NCBI GenBank assembly: GCA_019359375.1
Contig: JAHHHL010000004.1
Coordinates: 124,001-188,000, forward strand
DNA length: 64,000 nucleotides
Reading direction: 5' to 3'
Origin: Lyngbya sp. HA4199-MV5
GTDB lineage: Bacteria; Cyanobacteriota; Cyanobacteriia; Leptolyngbyales; Leptolyngbyaceae
A program made the position numbers and the translations under genes. Numbering within the stretch: the first letter of the stretch is position 1; the number at the start of each line of letters is the position of its first letter. The notes below the pieces were generated by a model. It was not told the DNA's origin. It ran no database searches and worked only from the letters and a program-made list of their open reading frames with translations. Of this stretch, positions 25,651 through 32,509 are shown piece by piece.

Positions 25651-26263
25651 CGTTTGTACCTTTAAAGCGGTCCCGTTTTCCTTACGCCAACCGGGAGTAA
25701 TTTGATCGGGAAATATGTAAGAAGGTTAGGCAACGGTTTGCTAACTTATCCCTATCTACAGGCATAAACCCTTTAACACGTTTGTAATTTTTGCTTGTTA
25801 TGCTGCTGACATACCGTTAAACGACTTCGTCTCAAGCCTACTGTTACAAACTTGGGCAATCACTCCTGCACTTACTGAGAAGAGCAACGTCAAAGTGGTA
25901 GGTTTTCGGATACGTGGTGTACTTAATTGCTAGCAAAAGGGATTAAGCGTTGCCTTGCTTACCGTCTCTCCTTAGTCTCTAACCTAATACAACTTAAGAC
26001 AAGCTTAACCATCTACACCAAACAGCACTCTTGCTAGGATATGTGAGTGCAGCATCACGCATCTTTTTCGATCAGTTGTTGCTGGCAGCTTCCCATCTAC
26101 GCGCAAAGTTTTTCTTTTTCCCGCTGTTAGTTTCCTTTCTGCTGCTGCCAAGAAATAATTCAAAAAATCGGTTAGAAGAGTCTAATCTACTTTTAGAGAG
26201 AGGCAGACCGAAAAAGAGCTTTCTATAGTGAGAAGGCTTCAAGCAACAAAGCAAGGTAAAACA
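25651..26263. other. Divergent intergenic region
   Basis: About 610 bp between the leftward membrane protein and the rightward PRC/DUF2382 gene. Both promoters must lie here. Overlapping open frames at 26031-26228 (+) and 26072-26323 (-) look spurious. No repeat or RNA gene recognised. Confidence 0.35.
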
Positions 26264-27190
26264 ATGGCTCTCTATAAGATTAAAGACTTTGATCCAGACT
26301 ATTGCAAGCATTTCGACAATCAAGATTTTTTGAGTTTTGATCTTTACAACGGGAACGAAAAAGTTGGCTCGGTCGATAATCTTCTAGTTGATGAAAACGG
26401 CAGCTTTCGTTACTTCGTTATCAACACAGGCATTTGGGTTTTCGGTAAAAAAGTATTGCTTCCGATCGGTCGTGCCAGAATTTCTTATGCAGACCATCGG
26501 ATCTATGCGGATAACCTCAACCGCTCCCAAGTGGAAACGCTTCCTGAGTTTGACGAAAACTCTGTGGTTGATTACGACCATGAGGAAAGCGTTCGCAGCA
26601 CTTACCGTTCCGGTGCTACGGCTTCTCGTAGTGCAGCCCTTGATCAATCGGCGGCGATCGGCAACACACCGCTTGAGCGCTCAACCCAAGGTGCTGCATC
26701 TAGTCGCGATACCTACGATCGCAGTACCTACAATTACGACCGTGACCCAGACCTTTACGACTTTAACGAGCGTGATCACCAGAATCTCAAACTTTATCAA
26801 GAACGCTTGATTGCCAACAAAACGCGCCAAAAGTCAGGGGATGTTGCTGTTGGCAAGCGGGTAGAAACTGAGACAGCTCGTGTTTCAGTACCGATCGAAA
26901 AAGAGCGCGTTGTCATTGAGCGAACCGCAGGAAACGACGTTGGTACTCCAGTTGATGCAGCTAGTGCTGATTTTCGTGCGGGTGAAGTTGCCCGTATGGA
27001 AGTGTATGAAGAGGTTCCCGATATTCGCAAGGAAACCATTGTTCGCGAGAATGTGAGTGTGCGCAAAGAGATTGACCGCGATACGGTTGAGGCGCAAGAG
27101 GAACTTCGTCGTGAGGAGTTAGATGTTAACACTCAGGGGCATCCAGTAGTTGACCAAACGCCCGATCAACGGACAAACAAACGACGCTAG
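26264..27190 (+). CDS. PRC-barrel and DUF2382 stress protein (YsnF/AvaK-like)
   Basis: 308 residues from the ATG at 26264; an in-frame GTG at 26228 has less support. Residues 1-~85 form a PRC-barrel (NEKVGSVDNLLVDENGSFRYF, then VFGKKVLLPIGRARI). A low-complexity region rich in Ser, Tyr, Asp and Arg follows (about 95-170). A DUF2382 domain begins KLYQERLIANKTRQKSGDVA and carries EVPDIRKETIVRENVSVRKE. This architecture is known from Bacillus YsnF and the cyanobacterial akinete marker AvaK, which are linked to stress or dormancy. The neighbour downstream also has DUF2382. Confidence 0.9.
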   Translation: MALYKIKDFDPDYCKHFDNQDFLSFDLYNGNEKVGSVDNLLVDENGSFRYFVINTGIWVFGKKVLLPIGRARISYADHRIYADNLNRSQVETLPEFDENSVVDYDHEESVRSTYRSGATASRSAALDQSAAIGNTPLERSTQGAASSRDTYDRSTYNYDRDPDLYDFNERDHQNLKLYQERLIANKTRQKSGDVAVGKRVETETARVSVPIEKERVVIERTAGNDVGTPVDAASADFRAGEVARMEVYEEVPDIRKETIVRENVSVRKEIDRDTVEAQEELRREELDVNTQGHPVVDQTPDQRTNKRR

Positions 27191-27229
27191 ACTGACAGTT
27201 CTTTGAAACAATCAGTTTATAGAGTATGC

Positions 27230-27271
27230 AAGTGCAGGTAGAGATTGCTTAATTTCTTTGCCTGCACTTTC
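27230..27271 (+). terminator. Rho-independent terminator after the PRC/DUF2382 gene
   Basis: AAGTGCAGG (27230-27238) pairs with CCTGCACTT (27261-27269) and is followed by TTCT. Confidence 0.65.
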
Positions 27272-27444
27272 TCCAAAGACGCTTTTTCCCAACTTAGGAC
27301 TACGAAAATCCCAGAGGTTTATCCAAGCATCAAGCACCTCAACCAACGTCATGGCTTAAACCTCCGAAGTTTTAACCAAGAAACGTAAGTGCTGTTCAAC
27401 TTTTCTTAACTCAATTTATACGCTCATATAGCAGCTTTAGAAAT

Positions 27445-28161
27445 ATGCCACCCACAAATTCTAGTGATCATTCCAATCATTCTACGTCTTTAAACTCTGT
27501 ACCTTTAGAAATGTCTGCTCCACTAGAAGCCTCTGCTCCGTTAGATTTTGAGGATGAGGTGACGATCGCACCAATAACCAACACCCCAGTTGCAAGGTCA
27601 TTCTCGCACACTGCCCAACCTCAAGCTCAGAAGACGATAATTGAGCACGATCGCAGCAATCAATCAGTTCTACCACTAGAGCCGCTGCCTGTGGAAGATC
27701 AGCAAGAGAATCTATCTTCAAGGCAGATGAATTCTCGTACATCACCTCAAATAGTGGAAGAGAAAGTCATTCGGTTACTCGAAGAGCGTTTAGTTGTTGA
27801 TCGCAAACGACATAAGGTTGGGGAGGTGGTCGTCCGCAAAGAAATTGAAACGCAGATCATTGAAGTACCTGTACGCCGTGAGAAACTGATTGTTGAACAA
27901 ATCGGTTCAGAAACAAGGCAACTGGCGGTGATCGATCTAGGGCATCCTGATCTTCAGCCCAAACTTAAAAGTGATGCAACGGTACAATCAGCCTCGCAAT
28001 CGACGATCGTGGGTGAATTTGTGTCAATTAAAGCCGCCATTCAATTTTTGGAAACACTTGCGGCTACTCAACCTGCTGGAGATAATCAGACAGTGCAGGT
28101 AGAGGTCTCAGTGGAAAAGGTAGAACCAAATGAACTCGATCGGCAACGGTTCGATCGCTGA
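27445..28161 (+). CDS. DUF2382-domain protein
   Basis: 238 residues. The first ~105 residues are low-complexity, rich in Ser, Pro, Glu and Gln. A DUF2382 core then starts KVIRLLEERLVVDRKRHKVGE and continues through ETQIIEVPVRREKLIVEQI. The C-terminal part (VSIKAAIQFLETLAATQ) is helical and ends with a short strand-like segment. It lacks the PRC-barrel of its upstream neighbour, so the pair may have arisen by duplication and domain loss. Probably stress-related by family; no biochemical role known. Confidence 0.83.
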   Translation: MPPTNSSDHSNHSTSLNSVPLEMSAPLEASAPLDFEDEVTIAPITNTPVARSFSHTAQPQAQKTIIEHDRSNQSVLPLEPLPVEDQQENLSSRQMNSRTSPQIVEEKVIRLLEERLVVDRKRHKVGEVVVRKEIETQIIEVPVRREKLIVEQIGSETRQLAVIDLGHPDLQPKLKSDATVQSASQSTIVGEFVSIKAAIQFLETLAATQPAGDNQTVQVEVSVEKVEPNELDRQRFDR

Positions 28162-28317
28162 TCGACGATTCGTTCTGCCTTTATTTATATTCAAGCTTGT
28201 TTTATTTTACAAGACGAGTCCTGTGAGCAACGGATTGGGTAATAGACAAAGCGGATGAGTTTCTACTGTGGTAAAAAGTTATCGTGGTGAGAAGTCATCT
28301 ATTTCATCCGCTAACAT

Positions 28318-28875
28318 CTATTGCAAAGCATTGTTTGTAGGGTGCCAATCTTCCCGGTTCAAACGATACACAAAGCAATCATCATCGCCAAATTGCCGTC
28401 GATCGACCCGTTGAAAGCCGAGCCGTTCGTAGAAGCGATGAACACGCGTATTGCTGACTAATGGATCAACGAGTACAGCCGCTACAGTCGATTCAGCAAA
28501 ACAGCGGACGAGGGCAAGGTGCATCATACAAGTGCCATAGCCTTTGCCTAAATCAGTTGGTTCACCAATCCAAATATCAATTGCCCGAAGATTTGCGGCA
28601 ACATCTCCCCAATAATGGCTCTCTTCACGGGCTGGATCGATAATCTGCATAAAGCCAATCGGACGACCTTCAATCTCAGCAATGAGTTGCTCTCGCCAAT
28701 CAGGAGTGCGATCGAGTTCTACCTCCCAATGCCAATCATCGTTTGGATCTGAGGCAATTACGTGCGGCTGCTCATCCCACTGTCGCAGGAGGTTTAAATC
28801 AGCGATGGTAGCAGGACGCAAATACATTCCTTTAATATCGATCGAAGGCTTGCTCTTGCTGATGTAGGGAAACAT
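28318..28875 (-). CDS. GNAT-family N-acetyltransferase (AAC(6')-like)
   Basis: About 185 residues from the ATG at 28875; an ATG at 28827 (MYLRPATIADL) is an alternative. The GNAT core is visible: LRPATIADLNLLRQWDE, the acetyl-CoA region DLGKGYGTCMMHLAL, and DPLVSNTRVHRFYERLGFQ. The NDDWHWE/PIGFMQIID arrangement resembles aminoglycoside 6'-acetyltransferase relatives, though the natural substrate may be a different amine. The start overlaps the end of the rhodopsin gene, so the two are probably transcribed together. Confidence 0.85.
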   Translation of the reverse strand: MFPYISKSKPSIDIKGMYLRPATIADLNLLRQWDEQPHVIASDPNDDWHWEVELDRTPDWREQLIAEIEGRPIGFMQIIDPAREESHYWGDVAANLRAIDIWIGEPTDLGKGYGTCMMHLALVRCFAESTVAAVLVDPLVSNTRVHRFYERLGFQRVDRRQFGDDDCFVYRLNREDWHPTNNALQ

Positions 28876-29542
28876 CTTCAACAGATTCCAATTGCTGAAG
28901 CGAATTTAAAGCCAGGAAGCCAAACCCAACTTTAGCCGCAACATCAAGAATCGTATAACACGCCGTTTCCGCCACACTATTGATGACGTTGAACCCAGTA
29001 CTGGCTAAAAGCCACACCACCGGATAAGCCGACCAAATCACGAGATGAACCATCAGTAAGCGTCGAAACGTTTTCTTTGACCGAGGGTATTGCTGCTCTG
29101 CTTGCTGGCGGTAGTATTTCAATAACAGATACACCAACCCCACATAAGCACCACAACTCACCACGTACCAAACATAACTGATGGGTTTCTGGGAAATGGT
29201 GGCGACAAAGCCAGTCACGATCATGTAAACATCCGCACCGATCATGCTGGCTGCAACCCAAAGACTGGTTCGTCCAAGATAACTGAGTAGGATGAGCGTT
29301 AATGGAGTTGAAAAAGTCCAGGTCAAGTAGCGAGTTAAATAAGCTGGACGATCGCCAAGATAAACAAAGCCCTGTTTGAAGATCATCGCCAGATATAAAG
29401 AGGCGGCAATGGCACAAATGAAAAAGTTTAAGCTGTAAACAATTTGCCATCGCTTGCTTTTTGCACGATCGGCTCCAGAACCAAAAAAGATTGTCCCTAG
29501 TGTCATGCTGATGCATCCCAGCCACAGCCAAACCTGTATCAT
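28832..29542 (-). CDS. Microbial rhodopsin, halorhodopsin-like anion-pump type
   Basis: 236 residues with seven hydrophobic helices. Helix C reads RYLTWTFSTP. Relative to bacteriorhodopsin, R82 is kept (R71), D85 is Thr74, T89 is Ser78, P91 is P80 and D96 is Leu85. Helix G has LDVAAKVGFG, with the D212 equivalent at D200 and the retinal-binding lysine at K204. Helix F has WSAYP. Thr at the D85 site is typical of light-driven chloride pumps; cyanobacterial ones described so far (Mastigocladopsis type) are TSD, so the motif here (TSL) differs at the donor position. No retinal-forming oxygenase gene is in the window. It lies between an MFS gene upstream and a GNAT gene downstream, all leftward. 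Confidence 0.93.
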   Translation of the reverse strand: MIQVWLWLGCISMTLGTIFFGSGADRAKSKRWQIVYSLNFFICAIAASLYLAMIFKQGFVYLGDRPAYLTRYLTWTFSTPLTLILLSYLGRTSLWVAASMIGADVYMIVTGFVATISQKPISYVWYVVSCGAYVGLVYLLLKYYRQQAEQQYPRSKKTFRRLLMVHLVIWSAYPVVWLLASTGFNVINSVAETACYTILDVAAKVGFGFLALNSLQQLESVEDVSLHQQEQAFDRY

Positions 29543-29631
29543 TAACGTCCGCCTTGAACCTATTTTTTGTCAATGTAGAGGACGCGGTCAAGCAAGTTCG
29601 TCTATCCAATGAAGGAAGTATGCCATTGAAG

Positions 29632-30963
29632 CTATTCTGGCTTCAATGGCGGGTACTGCTCGGTGTTGATTGATCGCTTCCGATAATTGATGGCTAAGTT
29701 TTGGTAGGAGCGCGATCGCATTGCCATGAGCGTCACAATTAACCCGATCAATCCGGTTACGGTAAATAAAAGTGCAAGACCTCGATCGGCTCCAGTGCCG
29801 AACCAACTACCAATGAGCCTGGTGCCCGCGCCCGTCGTCATAAAGGGGATAAAAATGAATTGGGCGATTGGTCCAATCATGAAAGCGGTGAGGGGAGATG
29901 CCGCTTGCTCGATGCTTTGAGCAAACCCAAAAACGCGTCCCTGCCGTTCCAATGGAATCATGGTTTGCAAAATGGTTTGCTCCGATGCTTCAACCACTGG
30001 GATGAGACAAAGATAGATGAACATGCCGATCGCCAGCAACGCCACCGATTTTCGGAGAGTAAAGCCAGTAGCAATAATCCACATGACAATATTGGCTAAA
30101 AACATTGTCTGTAGCGGGCTTTTTCCTAACCCATTTTTGGCAACTGCCAGACCACCAACAATGAATCCTAAGCTTAAGATGCCCCACAATGTACCCCAGA
30201 CTTGAACTGACACCAGGGATAATCCATAGGCATCCATTAGAGACATAAAGACTCCGCCCAAAAAGTTATTGAAGCAATTGAAAAAAATGAGTCCAAAGAG
30301 TCCGGGAACGAGATGAATGGCATGAATGGTGCCACGAAGATCAATATGTTTCGTTTGATGTTCTGTATGAATTGTTCTTGGCTCAGGAATAGCGACTGTG
30401 GCGAGATGCATGATGACTGCAAGCGTTAATGCGATCGCAAACACCAACATCCAATAAACACCGAGAAACCCAATTGCCAGACCGCTAAAGATGGAAGCGA
30501 GCAGAAAGGAAACCCCATTCGCCGTCCCCACCAACCCGTTTGCTTGAGCGTGTTTAGCTTCAGGAATCAAGAGGGTGACGAGAGTTGGCAGGGCTATGGT
30601 ACGAATGTTGCCCGCGATCGCTCCTACCAATGTCAGGATGATAAAGATCCAGAGTATAGGGCTGGCAGGATCAGTGAAAACAGTCGTTGGAGTGGAACTA
30701 AAAACAGCGTAAGCAATGATGTATAAAACGAGCGAGCCAATGCTTGAAAGCATCATGGCTGTTTTCTTATGGTATCGATCGACCAACGAGCCGAGGAAAA
30801 AGCCAGAAATGGCAACGGTGACGAGATAGATACCTGCCATCACTGACGTTGCAAGCACAGACTGGGTTTGTAGATAAACCCAAAAGGTCACTGCAAACCA
30901 GACAAAGGTGTTGGTTAGAGCAGCCACCAGTGAGTTAGCTAAAACGGCGTAAAACAGTTTCAT
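29632..30963 (-). CDS. Major facilitator superfamily exporter
   Basis: 443 residues with about 12 hydrophobic segments. The FLGSLVDRYHKKTAMML loop between TM2 and TM3 is the MFS motif A. The overall pattern fits the MFS_3/EntS-like drug or siderophore efflux group. It lies 89 bp upstream of the rhodopsin gene in the same direction. Substrate unknown. No strong ribosome-binding site precedes the ATG at 30963. Confidence 0.87.
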   Translation of the reverse strand: MKLFYAVLANSLVAALTNTFVWFAVTFWVYLQTQSVLATSVMAGIYLVTVAISGFFLGSLVDRYHKKTAMMLSSIGSLVLYIIAYAVFSSTPTTVFTDPASPILWIFIILTLVGAIAGNIRTIALPTLVTLLIPEAKHAQANGLVGTANGVSFLLASIFSGLAIGFLGVYWMLVFAIALTLAVIMHLATVAIPEPRTIHTEHQTKHIDLRGTIHAIHLVPGLFGLIFFNCFNNFLGGVFMSLMDAYGLSLVSVQVWGTLWGILSLGFIVGGLAVAKNGLGKSPLQTMFLANIVMWIIATGFTLRKSVALLAIGMFIYLCLIPVVEASEQTILQTMIPLERQGRVFGFAQSIEQAASPLTAFMIGPIAQFIFIPFMTTGAGTRLIGSWFGTGADRGLALLFTVTGLIGLIVTLMAMRSRSYQNLAINYRKRSINTEQYPPLKPE

Positions 30964-31065
30964 TGTGGTGTATGTATTTTGTCTCTGCTGCTGTTGAACA
31001 ACGCTTCAACCCATATGTTGGCACCCTACGTGGGCAGTCGGCGATCGGTAGGAACGTTACATGTA

Positions 31066-31165
31066 ATACCAGTTCCAAAAGACTGCACTACAGATGACCG
31101 TCTGTAGGGGCATACGGTCGTATGCCCCTACGAGGATTTGTAAATGGAATTTAGAGAATTGGTAT
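31066..31165 (+). repeat. Dispersed repeat R3, 100-bp copy with terminal inverted repeats
   Basis: Ends ATACCAGTTCC and GAATTGGTAT are near inverted repeats. The centre is a 13-bp stem, GTAGGGGCATACG/CGTATGCCCCTAC (31104-31131). It shares order and sequence with 22195-22270. It lies between the MFS gene (diverging from it) and recF. Confidence 0.75.
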
Positions 31166-31273
31166 AACGTCCCTACAGAAATCATGAACAACATTTCTAG
31201 AACACCACCCCGTAGAGCACAACATGCACTAAGACCGACAAAAGGTTTGTCCGTACTACATCATACTACAAGA

Positions 31274-32509
31274 CTACGCTCCTGGCGTTAGTTGCCCCTG
31301 TTTAACGGAAAAAATCTGCGATGAATAGAGCCATTGCGCATCAAAAGACCCCAGATGTGTAGTGGTAATGAGTGTCTGATAGCGGTCTTGTATGGTTTCA
31401 AGTAACTGATTTTGACGGTTGAGATCAAGTTCTGCCAGCACATCATCCAGCAGCAGAAGGGGTGGTTCACCAATCACCTCTTCAATCAGTTTAAGTTCGG
31501 CTAATTTAAGCGCCAGCACCAGAGTCCGCTGCTGCCCTTGAGACCCATACTGACGTGCAGATGTTTGATTGATTGTAAAATCCACATCATCGCGATGAGG
31601 TCCTACGAGCGTTGTGTGCTGGTACTGCTCGGCGATCGCCCGTTCCTGAATTTTTGCCAAAAATGCCTGCTTCACCCACTCAGGCTCATCCTGTGCTAAC
31701 GCTACATTAGGCGCATAATGGACGGCTAACTCTTCCGTACTGCCGCTAATCGCATGATGCCAGCGCTGCGCCAGGGGAGCCAACCGCTGCAAAACTCTTG
31801 CCCGTCGCCGAATCACTCTCGTACCGGTTGCGGCAAGTTGAGCATCCCACAGCGCAAGTTCGTCGTGAGGAGATGGGGAACGGGATGTGGGGTATAGGGG
31901 AGAGGGCACAGATTCGAGTTCTGAGGTTTGATCAAAGCCTGTTTCTTGCTGTGCTGGCTTCTGACTCTTGACTTCTGACTCCTGACTTCTGACTTCTGAC
32001 TCCTGTTTCCTTTTCAACAACGCATTCCGCTGCCGCAGCACCTGGTTGTACTGCTGCAAAATGTGAGCATAGACAGGTTCTAGTTGGATCAGCAAGGAAT
32101 CAACCCAATTGCGCCGCTGATCTGGACCACCGCGTACCAGGTCGAGATCCAGGCTAGAGAACTGCACCATGTTCAGAATACCGAGGAAATCAAGTTGCCG
32201 TCGCACCGTTTCGCTGTTAATTGCAACAGTGCGACGGCTGTTGAGCCGCAGGGTAAACGAAAGATCAACCGAGCCGATCTCACGATCGATCTGTGCCGCC
32301 ACTTGAGCGCTGGTCTTACCCGTGTAAATTAAGTCGCGATCGCGGGTGGTACGGTGCGATCGTAGCGTTGACAGCAATTCAACAGCTTCTAGAAGATTAG
32401 ACTTCCCCTGAGCATTGTTGCCCAACAAAATGGTTTTAGGGGCATTAAACTCCACCGCCTGATCGAGATAGTTACGAAATTGTCGGAGGTGGAGCGTTTT
32501 AAGATACAT
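31274..32509 (-). CDS. recF: DNA replication and repair protein RecF
   Basis: 411 residues. The Walker A motif GNNAQGKS is at about 30-37 after LRQFRNY. The signature [15 protein letters not shown] and Walker [13 protein letters not shown] with the D-loop are near the C-terminus. RecF loads RecA at single-strand gaps with RecO and RecR. The central region (about residues 168-215) carries an insertion of Gln, Ser, Glu, Val, Lys and Pro-rich sequence encoded by heptamer repeats, which most RecF proteins lack (usual length ~360-390). The rest of the fold is complete, so the gene is probably functional. Confidence 0.95.
31865..32010. repeat. STRR heptamer tract inside recF
   Basis: CTGACTT/CTGACTC-type heptamers at about 31955-32008, plus a GATGGGG/GTGGGGT-type stretch near 31870-31910. 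All are read in frame as the RecF insertion ([15 protein letters not shown]). Confidence 0.85.

What the first reader, a model, noticed from the sequence alone, without database searches (positions are those of the whole stretch)
28832..29542. Halorhodopsin-like rhodopsin with a Thr-Ser-Leu helix-C motif
T74, S78 and L85 replace the D85/T89/D96 set of bacteriorhodopsin. Known cyanobacterial halide pumps have T-S-D; archaeal halorhodopsins have T-S-A. Leu at the third position in an otherwise complete rhodopsin (R71, D200, K204 kept) may mark a separate group with altered anion choice or photocycle.
Basis: partly seen in the sequence, partly recalled or inferred. Interest (0 to 1): 0.78.

Follow-up and report, generated by a model that had tools for sequence, protein, structure and literature searches.

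The report
Chloride-pump rhodopsin of the TSL branch
A cyanobacterium carries a gene for a probable light-driven anion pump from a known but apparently untested branch of the cyanobacterial halorhodopsins, which lacks a buried acidic residue found in the two studied pumps but has another acidic residue at a second place near the ion's exit path.

Summary
In detail: 28832-29542 (-) encodes an intact 236-residue microbial rhodopsin with R71, T74, S78, L85, D200 and K204, 55-56% identical to SyHR and MrHR, the two characterised cyanobacterial halorhodopsins. The TSL motif is already in print as a variant of this family (PMC5877348, PMC9617919; passages). What I add: 12 distinct TSL proteins form one clade (100/98 and 100/96), 11 of them from 42 searched genomes of the host's family. 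In that clade L85 goes with D104 (N in 35 of 35 TSD/TSI/TSV rows), T82, A203, L136 and usually V35, positions that line two cytoplasmic sites in SyHR. The named chloride-site residues and H166 are kept. T182, in 12 of 12 TSL rows, replaces MrHR's E182, the published block to sulfate. Best reading: a working inward chloride pump, possibly also carrying sulfate, with its cytoplasmic acid at 104 instead of 85. L85 itself is unlikely to set anion choice. Transport and retinal binding are untested. Moderate interest; new member of a known kind.

The parts
28832..29542 (-). cyanobacterial halorhodopsin gene, 236 aa, TSL motif
   Evidence: ORF and translation; Pfam PF01036 E 9.8e-48; SyHR 1e-85, MrHR 6.3e-85 in the PDB sequence search; dN/dS 0.08 with L002
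29330..29332 (-). R71 codon (needed for sulfate binding in SyHR)
   Evidence: alignment; role from PMC11995866
29321..29323 (-). T74 codon, first motif letter (chloride ligand in SyHR)
   Evidence: alignment; role from PMC9617919
29309..29311 (-). S78 codon, second motif letter (chloride ligand in SyHR)
   Evidence: alignment; role from PMC9617919
29288..29290 (-). L85 codon, third motif letter (D85 in SyHR and MrHR)
   Evidence: L in 12 of 12 TSL-clade rows
29231..29233 (-). D104 codon (N104 in SyHR, where it shares a small water cavity with H167)
   Evidence: D in 12 of 12 TSL and 2 of 2 TST rows, N in 35 of 35 TSD/TSI/TSV rows; cavity from PMC9617919
29045..29047 (-). H166 codon (SyHR H167), hallmark of the cyanobacterial anion pumps
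   Evidence: H in 49 of 49 CyHR rows; role from PMC9617919 and PMC11995866
28997..28999 (-). T182 codon (MrHR E182, SyHR T183), anion-entrance residue
   Evidence: T in 12 of 12 TSL rows, E in 21 of 29 TSD rows; role from PMC9525653
28943..28945 (-). D200 codon (counterion, SyHR D201)
   Evidence: role from PMC9617919
28931..28933 (-). K204 codon (retinal Schiff-base lysine, SyHR K205)
   Evidence: role from PMC9617919
28318..28827 (-). GNAT acetyltransferase gene directly downstream, same strand (neighbour; no functional link shown)
   Evidence: Pfam PF13523 E 2.4e-25
29632..30963 (-). MFS transporter gene upstream, same strand (neighbour; no functional link shown)
   Evidence: Pfam PF07690 E 3.4e-24; no tblastn match of either neighbour in the stretches of L002 and L003 that are held

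Best explanation
The gene encodes a functional light-driven inward chloride pump of the cyanobacterial halorhodopsin (CyHR) clade, in a TSL branch of it. The confidence given is for this core; I put sulfate transport at about 0.5 and a real role for D104 at about 0.3. Retinal on K204 holds a protonated Schiff base. T74, S78, R71 and D200 form the same chloride site as in SyHR and MrHR. Light flips the retinal and pulls the anion past the Schiff base; it leaves to the cytoplasm along helix F past H166. In this branch the buried cytoplasmic acid D85 and its pocket residues L35 and L82 are replaced, and an acid sits at D104 near H166, perhaps protonated and hydrogen-bonded to T79 as D115 is to T90 in bacteriorhodopsin (that comparison is recalled, from no call). 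T182, E192 and R71 predict that sulfate is carried too. Shown: sequence, clade, conserved residues, purifying selection. Inferred: retinal binding, transport, anion choice, and the role and protonation of D104.
For: Nearest solved proteins are SyHR and MrHR (E 1e-85 and 6.3e-85; the next protein, 6lm0, is at 1.8e-45). 47 positions are invariant across the 49 CyHR rows, the window included, among them R71, T74, W75, S78, T79, H166, E192, D200 and K204. TSL rows form one clade. dN/dS 0.08 with L002. Two carotenoid oxygenases (PF03055) in the genome offer a possible retinal source; PMC7541481 says almost all cyanobacterial genomes it examined carry diox1 (passage). T182 in 12 of 12 TSL rows, with the published effect of that position. 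Residues of the published trimer contacts, A46, Q57, Y106 and W125, are present.
Against: My paper searches showed no expressed member with L85. D85 has been proposed to stop chloride backflow against a steep gradient (PMC9617919), so its loss could weaken the pump. A charged D104 near the exit path would repel anions unless protonated. Position 136 is Leu, hydrophobic like MrHR I136, so the second SyHR cavity may be missing. The sulfate rule at 182 was tested only in TSD proteins, and two groups disagree on 63/118. The basic helix-F end seen here is not uniform in the TSL clade (Lys at 157 in 6 of 12, a basic residue at 160 in 2 of 12), and that region alone did not give MrHR sulfate transport. 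The structure model failed. Rhodopsin genes of this kind look broken in several other genomes, so the pump is dispensable.
Confidence: 0.8

Rival explanations
1. Rival to the additions, not to the core: a chloride/bromide-only pump in which L85 is neutral drift at a position the family does not need; D104, T82 and A203 are passengers and sulfate is not carried.
For: D85 is not conserved in the family and its replacement in MrHR changes the photocycle little (PMC9617919); TSI and TSV rows lost D85 while keeping N104; D, L, I, V and T all occur at 85.
Against: T182, E192 and R71 match sulfate-pumping SyHR; L85, T82 and D104 are fixed together in 12 of 12 TSL rows, though this may be one event.
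Confidence: 0.4
2. A rhodopsin that lost efficient pumping and acts as a light sensor or slow photoswitch.
For: Loss of the cytoplasmic acid; no transport data found for any TSL member.
Against: T74, S78 and H166 (the histidine important for efficient transport in SyHR) are invariant; none of the six neighbouring ORFs scanned matched a transducer family (the rest of the window was not scanned).
Confidence: 0.08
3. A decaying gene kept by chance, with L85 an early lesion.
For: Remnants occur in several cyanobacterial genomes, one of them in the same genus (L052, with the same match as L008).
Against: Intact ORF; dN/dS 0.08; L85 shared by 12 distinct proteins in one clade.
Confidence: 0.03

Closest known systems
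SyHR (Synechocystis sp. PCC 7509 halorhodopsin, PDB 7zou)
   Same: 55% identity; R71, T74, S78, H166/167, T182/183, E192/193, D200/201, K204/205; basic residues at the cytoplasmic end of helix F
   Different: D85 here L85; N104 here D104; T137 here L136; L35 V; L82 T; S204 A203; S212 A211; Q190 S189
MrHR (Mastigocladopsis repens halorhodopsin, PDB 6k6i, 6xl3)
   Same: 56% identity; same chloride-site residues and H166; hydrophobic residue at 136
   Different: D85 to L85; N104 to D104; E182 to T182 (MrHR is described as halide-only in PMC9525653)
TSL/TSV/TSI variants mentioned in PMC5877348 and PMC9617919
   Same: same third motif letter (TSL) in cyanobacterial halorhodopsins
   Different: nothing in the passages read describes their function, D104 or a separate clade; I did not see which sequences were meant
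Archaeal halorhodopsin (TSA)
   Same: Thr-Ser chloride site, non-acidic third letter
   Different: third letter Ala and no helix-F histidine (PMC9617919); no entry labelled archaeal halorhodopsin among the 60 best of 173 PDB sequences; none was in my trees
Cyanorhodopsin (CyR, DTD/DTE proton pumps)
   Same: D104 and A203 in the rows that I take for CyR from their motif (L050, L060, L061, L150)
   Different: D at 74, T at 78, L instead of H at 166; proton pumps by PMC7541481

Membership tests
Cyanobacterial halorhodopsin (CyHR) | falls in the clade of SyHR and MrHR, apart from the DTD/DTE rows (CyR-like and haloarchaeal) | tested here: met
   CyHR branch 99/99 with 49 rows and 99/99 with 48 rows; window inside it. 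Archaeal halorhodopsins and CyR-II were not in the trees
Cyanobacterial halorhodopsin (CyHR) | Thr-Ser at the first two motif positions with R71, D200 and K204 | tested here: met
Cyanobacterial halorhodopsin (CyHR) | third motif letter mostly Asp, with Val/Leu/Ile variants admitted in print | tested here: met
   Leu here; PMC9617919 passage
Cyanobacterial halorhodopsin (CyHR) | helix-F histidine (H166/H167) | tested here: met
   49 of 49 CyHR rows
Cyanobacterial halorhodopsin (CyHR) | residues of the trimer contacts A46-Y106 and Q57-W126 (SyHR numbering) | tested here: met
   A46, Y106, Q57, W125 in the window protein; contacts from PMC9617919. Residues only; trimer formation not tested
[quoted passage not shown]
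   needs expression
Characterised TSD sub-group (SyHR, MrHR) | D85 with N104 | tested here: not met
   L85 and D104
Archaeal halorhodopsin | TSA motif and no helix-F histidine | tested here: not met
   TSL and H166
Sulfate-pumping rhodopsin (as SyHR) | no acidic residue at the 182/183 entrance position; R71 and E192/193 kept | tested here: met
   T182, R71, E192; rule from PMC9525653 and PMC11995866
Sulfate-pumping rhodopsin (as SyHR) | measured sulfate transport | not testable with these tools
   needs expression

The most novel reading that the evidence does not exclude
The TSL lineage, perhaps with the TST lineage, is a functionally distinct second kind of cyanobacterial anion pump. It carries chloride and sulfate, and its cytoplasmic gate is built on the D104-H166 pair instead of the D85-N39 pair, so that acid and pathway were rearranged together on one branch of the family.
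Probability: 0.25. Interest if true: 0.55.

Novelty: new member of a known kind. Interest (0 to 1): 0.36.

Why it matters
By PMC9617919, only two proteins of this clade, both TSD, had been characterised by 2022, and the role of D85 is unclear. A natural, intact clade without D85, with D104 near the exit histidine and without the E182 barrier, allows direct tests of two open points: whether a cytoplasmic acid at 85 matters for anion pumping, and whether position 182 predicts sulfate transport outside the TSD proteins. A second natural sulfate pump would also be useful as a tool.

Tried and rejected
A simple 'acid swap' (D85 lost and D104 gained in the TSL line) was my first idea (note) and is not settled. 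In the first tree the 35 N104 rows form a clade (94/89), TSL with TST has support 48/0, and position 104 needs one change with N derived. With three long-branched rows removed (L106, L081, L082) the CyHR root moves: TSL plus TST is a clade (96/90), joined to SyHR at 80/78, inside N104 rows, so D104 would be a reversal by my reading of that tree. In that reduced tree, AU tests reject neither TST with the N104 rows (p 0.466) nor TSL with the N104 rows (p 0.462). The D85/D104 exclusion may rest on a single evolutionary event, so it is weak evidence for coupling.

Structure prediction failed: AlphaFold with 3 sequences gave mean pLDDT 43.4; no fold search was run on it. Operon idea: neither the MFS nor the GNAT neighbour was found in the held stretches of L002 or L003, so no functional partner is claimed. 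Plasmid search: 8 of 72,556 records matched, best 36.8% identity, none cyanobacterial by name. RNA families over 26500-31500: one match far below its gathering score. Promoter and terminator scan over 28200-29800 near the shuffled mean (2 against 2.5; 2 against 1.3).

Loci were capped at 30 per search, and the class search drew a sample.

Full report
THE OBSERVATION. Window 28832-29542 on the minus strand is an intact ORF of 236 codons plus stop. Pfam assigns Bac_rhodopsin (E 9.8e-48), and this is the only match to that family in the host's 6.9-Mb assembly.

WHAT IT IS. A sequence search of the PDB puts SyHR (1e-85) and MrHR (6.3e-85) far ahead of the next protein (6lm0, 1.8e-45). On my alignment the window protein is 55.0% and 56.1% identical to them, and they are 70.4% identical to each other. 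Forty-seven positions are invariant across 49 distinct CyHR rows, the window included; among them are R71, T74, W75, S78, T79, H166, E192, D200 and K204. By published work on SyHR, T74 and S78 bind chloride, R71 is needed for sulfate, and the helix-F histidine (H167 there) is needed for efficient transport and for the O intermediate (PMC9617919 passages; PMC11995866 passages).

THE GROUP. I searched the host's family (42 genomes, the latter asked for the order and returned the same 42), a sample of its class (388 genomes, which again lists the family), and four family sets around other genomes (36, 63, 217 and 1 genomes), which overlap the class sample. One scan of genome contigs gave 7 loci, 3 of this type, one of those a fragment. 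After removing identical proteins and fragments I had 59 rows: 49 CyHR and 10 others. The CyHR rows comprise 29 TSD (SyHR and MrHR included), 12 TSL, 4 TSI, 2 TSV and 2 TST. The 12 TSL rows form one clade with 100/98 support when the trait columns 82, 85, 104, 203 and 211 are left out, and 100/96 when three long-branched rows are also removed. Eleven of the TSL rows come from 11 of the 42 genomes of the host's own family. The twelfth, L003, lies on a 13-kb contig of a metagenome assembly labelled Hydrococcus. Two other genomes of the family (G013, G014; L048 and L049) carry TSD proteins. None of the CyHR rows from outside this family that I read was TSL; fragments were not read.

WHAT GOES WITH L85. 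I listed positions where at least 11 of 12 TSL rows share a residue found in at most 1 of the 35 TSD/TSI/TSV rows: 10 (C), 35 (V), 82 (T), 85 (L), 100 (M), 104 (D), 135 (G), 136 (L), 189 (S) and 203 (A). By the published SyHR structure, L35 and L82 surround D85, while N104, T137 (136 here) and H167 coordinate the waters of a small cavity near the ion-release region, and the carbonyl of S204 (203 here) contributes to the neighbouring cavity. So 6 of the 10 positions fall in two published cytoplasmic sites, while the named chloride-site residues are unchanged; I did not compare the whole retinal pocket. D104 is D in 12 of 12 TSL, 2 of 2 TST and 10 of 10 non-CyHR rows, and N in 35 of 35 TSD/TSI/TSV rows. 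No CyHR row has an acid at both 85 and 104; TSI and TSV have one at neither. All of this may reflect one branch, so it is suggestive only. Whether D104 is ancestral or regained depends on the root and is open.

ANION CHOICE. In MrHR the acidic E182 at the anion entrance hinders sulfate; E182T raises the relative sulfate activity about 11-fold, and T183E or T183D weakens sulfate transport in SyHR (PMC9525653 passages). The window protein and all 12 TSL rows have T182; of the TSD rows 21 of 29 have E, 7 T and 1 S. R71 and E192, named for sulfate binding in SyHR (PMC11995866), are kept. Its helix-F cytoplasmic end (PRSKKTFRRLL) is at least as basic as SyHR's (PQAKKVFRKLL) and more so than MrHR's (PRSKQAFRTLV), but this is not uniform in the TSL clade, and that region alone did not give MrHR sulfate transport. 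Together this predicts sulfate as well as chloride transport. Against it: the rule was tested only in TSD proteins, and the same paper reports disagreement with another group on positions 63 and 118. The prediction has nothing to do with L85.

IS THE GENE ALIVE. dN 0.085, dS 1.07, ratio 0.08 against L002; ratios of 0.043 to 0.136 in the other pairs whose dS was finite, many of which are near saturation. The genome has two carotenoid-oxygenase genes, a plausible but unproven retinal source. The immediate neighbours, an MFS transporter and a GNAT acetyltransferase, have no match in the held stretches of L002 or L003. In the same-genus genome G035 a GNAT relative (86.5% identity) lies on a different contig from its rhodopsin remnant.

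LITERATURE. 'TSL motif' with cyanobacteria and halorhodopsin gave one paper, PMC5877348, which says that cyanobacterial HRs have TSD, TSV or TSL (passages). [quoted passage not shown] The search for TSV, TSL and TSI together gave only PMC9617919; 'cyanobacterial halorhodopsin' from 2018 gave five papers, of which I saw passages of three (PMC11528372, PMC9617919, PMC7541481) and only the listing of two; a TST-motif search gave none. None of what I saw describes a characterised TSL or TST member. Only open-licence PubMed Central papers are held, so subscription papers such as Harris et al. 2018, cited by PMC5877348, were not read. I read passages, not whole papers.

VERDICT. The motif itself is already in print. 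The likeliest function is an ordinary light-driven inward anion pump; the added interest lies in the fixed L85/D104/T182 combination and its direct tests.

Noticed in passing
L072 and L075 (genomes G133, G150): A TST variant of cyanobacterial halorhodopsin (T85, Q82, D104), two rows, one clade at 100/100; a paper search for a TST motif in cyanobacterial rhodopsins gave no paper.
   Followed up: partly
L008 6001-6179 (Tildeniella nuda) and L052 (genome G035, same genus as the host): Halorhodopsin remnant: residues 1-42 run almost directly into what looks like the C-terminal tail in another frame (weak match, E 0.047), with the middle of the gene gone.
   Followed up: partly
L092 1501-1698 (genome G174): Halorhodopsin-like piece in an open frame of 91 codons in which residues 1-33 are followed in frame by residues 203-235, the retinal lysine included; another internal deletion that keeps both ends.
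   Followed up: partly
L148 (G466), L149 (G465), L151 (G461), L152 (G583): Other rhodopsin genes of one cyanobacterial family that look broken by frameshift, internal deletion or insertion; assembly errors were not excluded.
   Followed up: no
window about 31060-31210: MITE-like element: parts of it recur in the host genome and relatives, and it folds into a strong hairpin (z -4.08).
   Followed up: partly
window about 27290-27411: Second dispersed repeat of about 100 bases, with many matches in the host genome and relatives; no notable fold.
   Followed up: partly
L003 6001-6708: A rhodopsin 81% identical to the window's lies on a 13-kb contig of an assembly labelled Hydrococcus; mislabelled contig or gene transfer.
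   Followed up: no
SyHR residue 190 (window S189): PMC9617919 names E190 in the extracellular basin, while the SyHR letters printed have Q at that place.
   Followed up: no
window 26228-27190 and 27445-28161: Two neighbouring DUF2382 genes, the first with a PRC-barrel domain.
   Followed up: no
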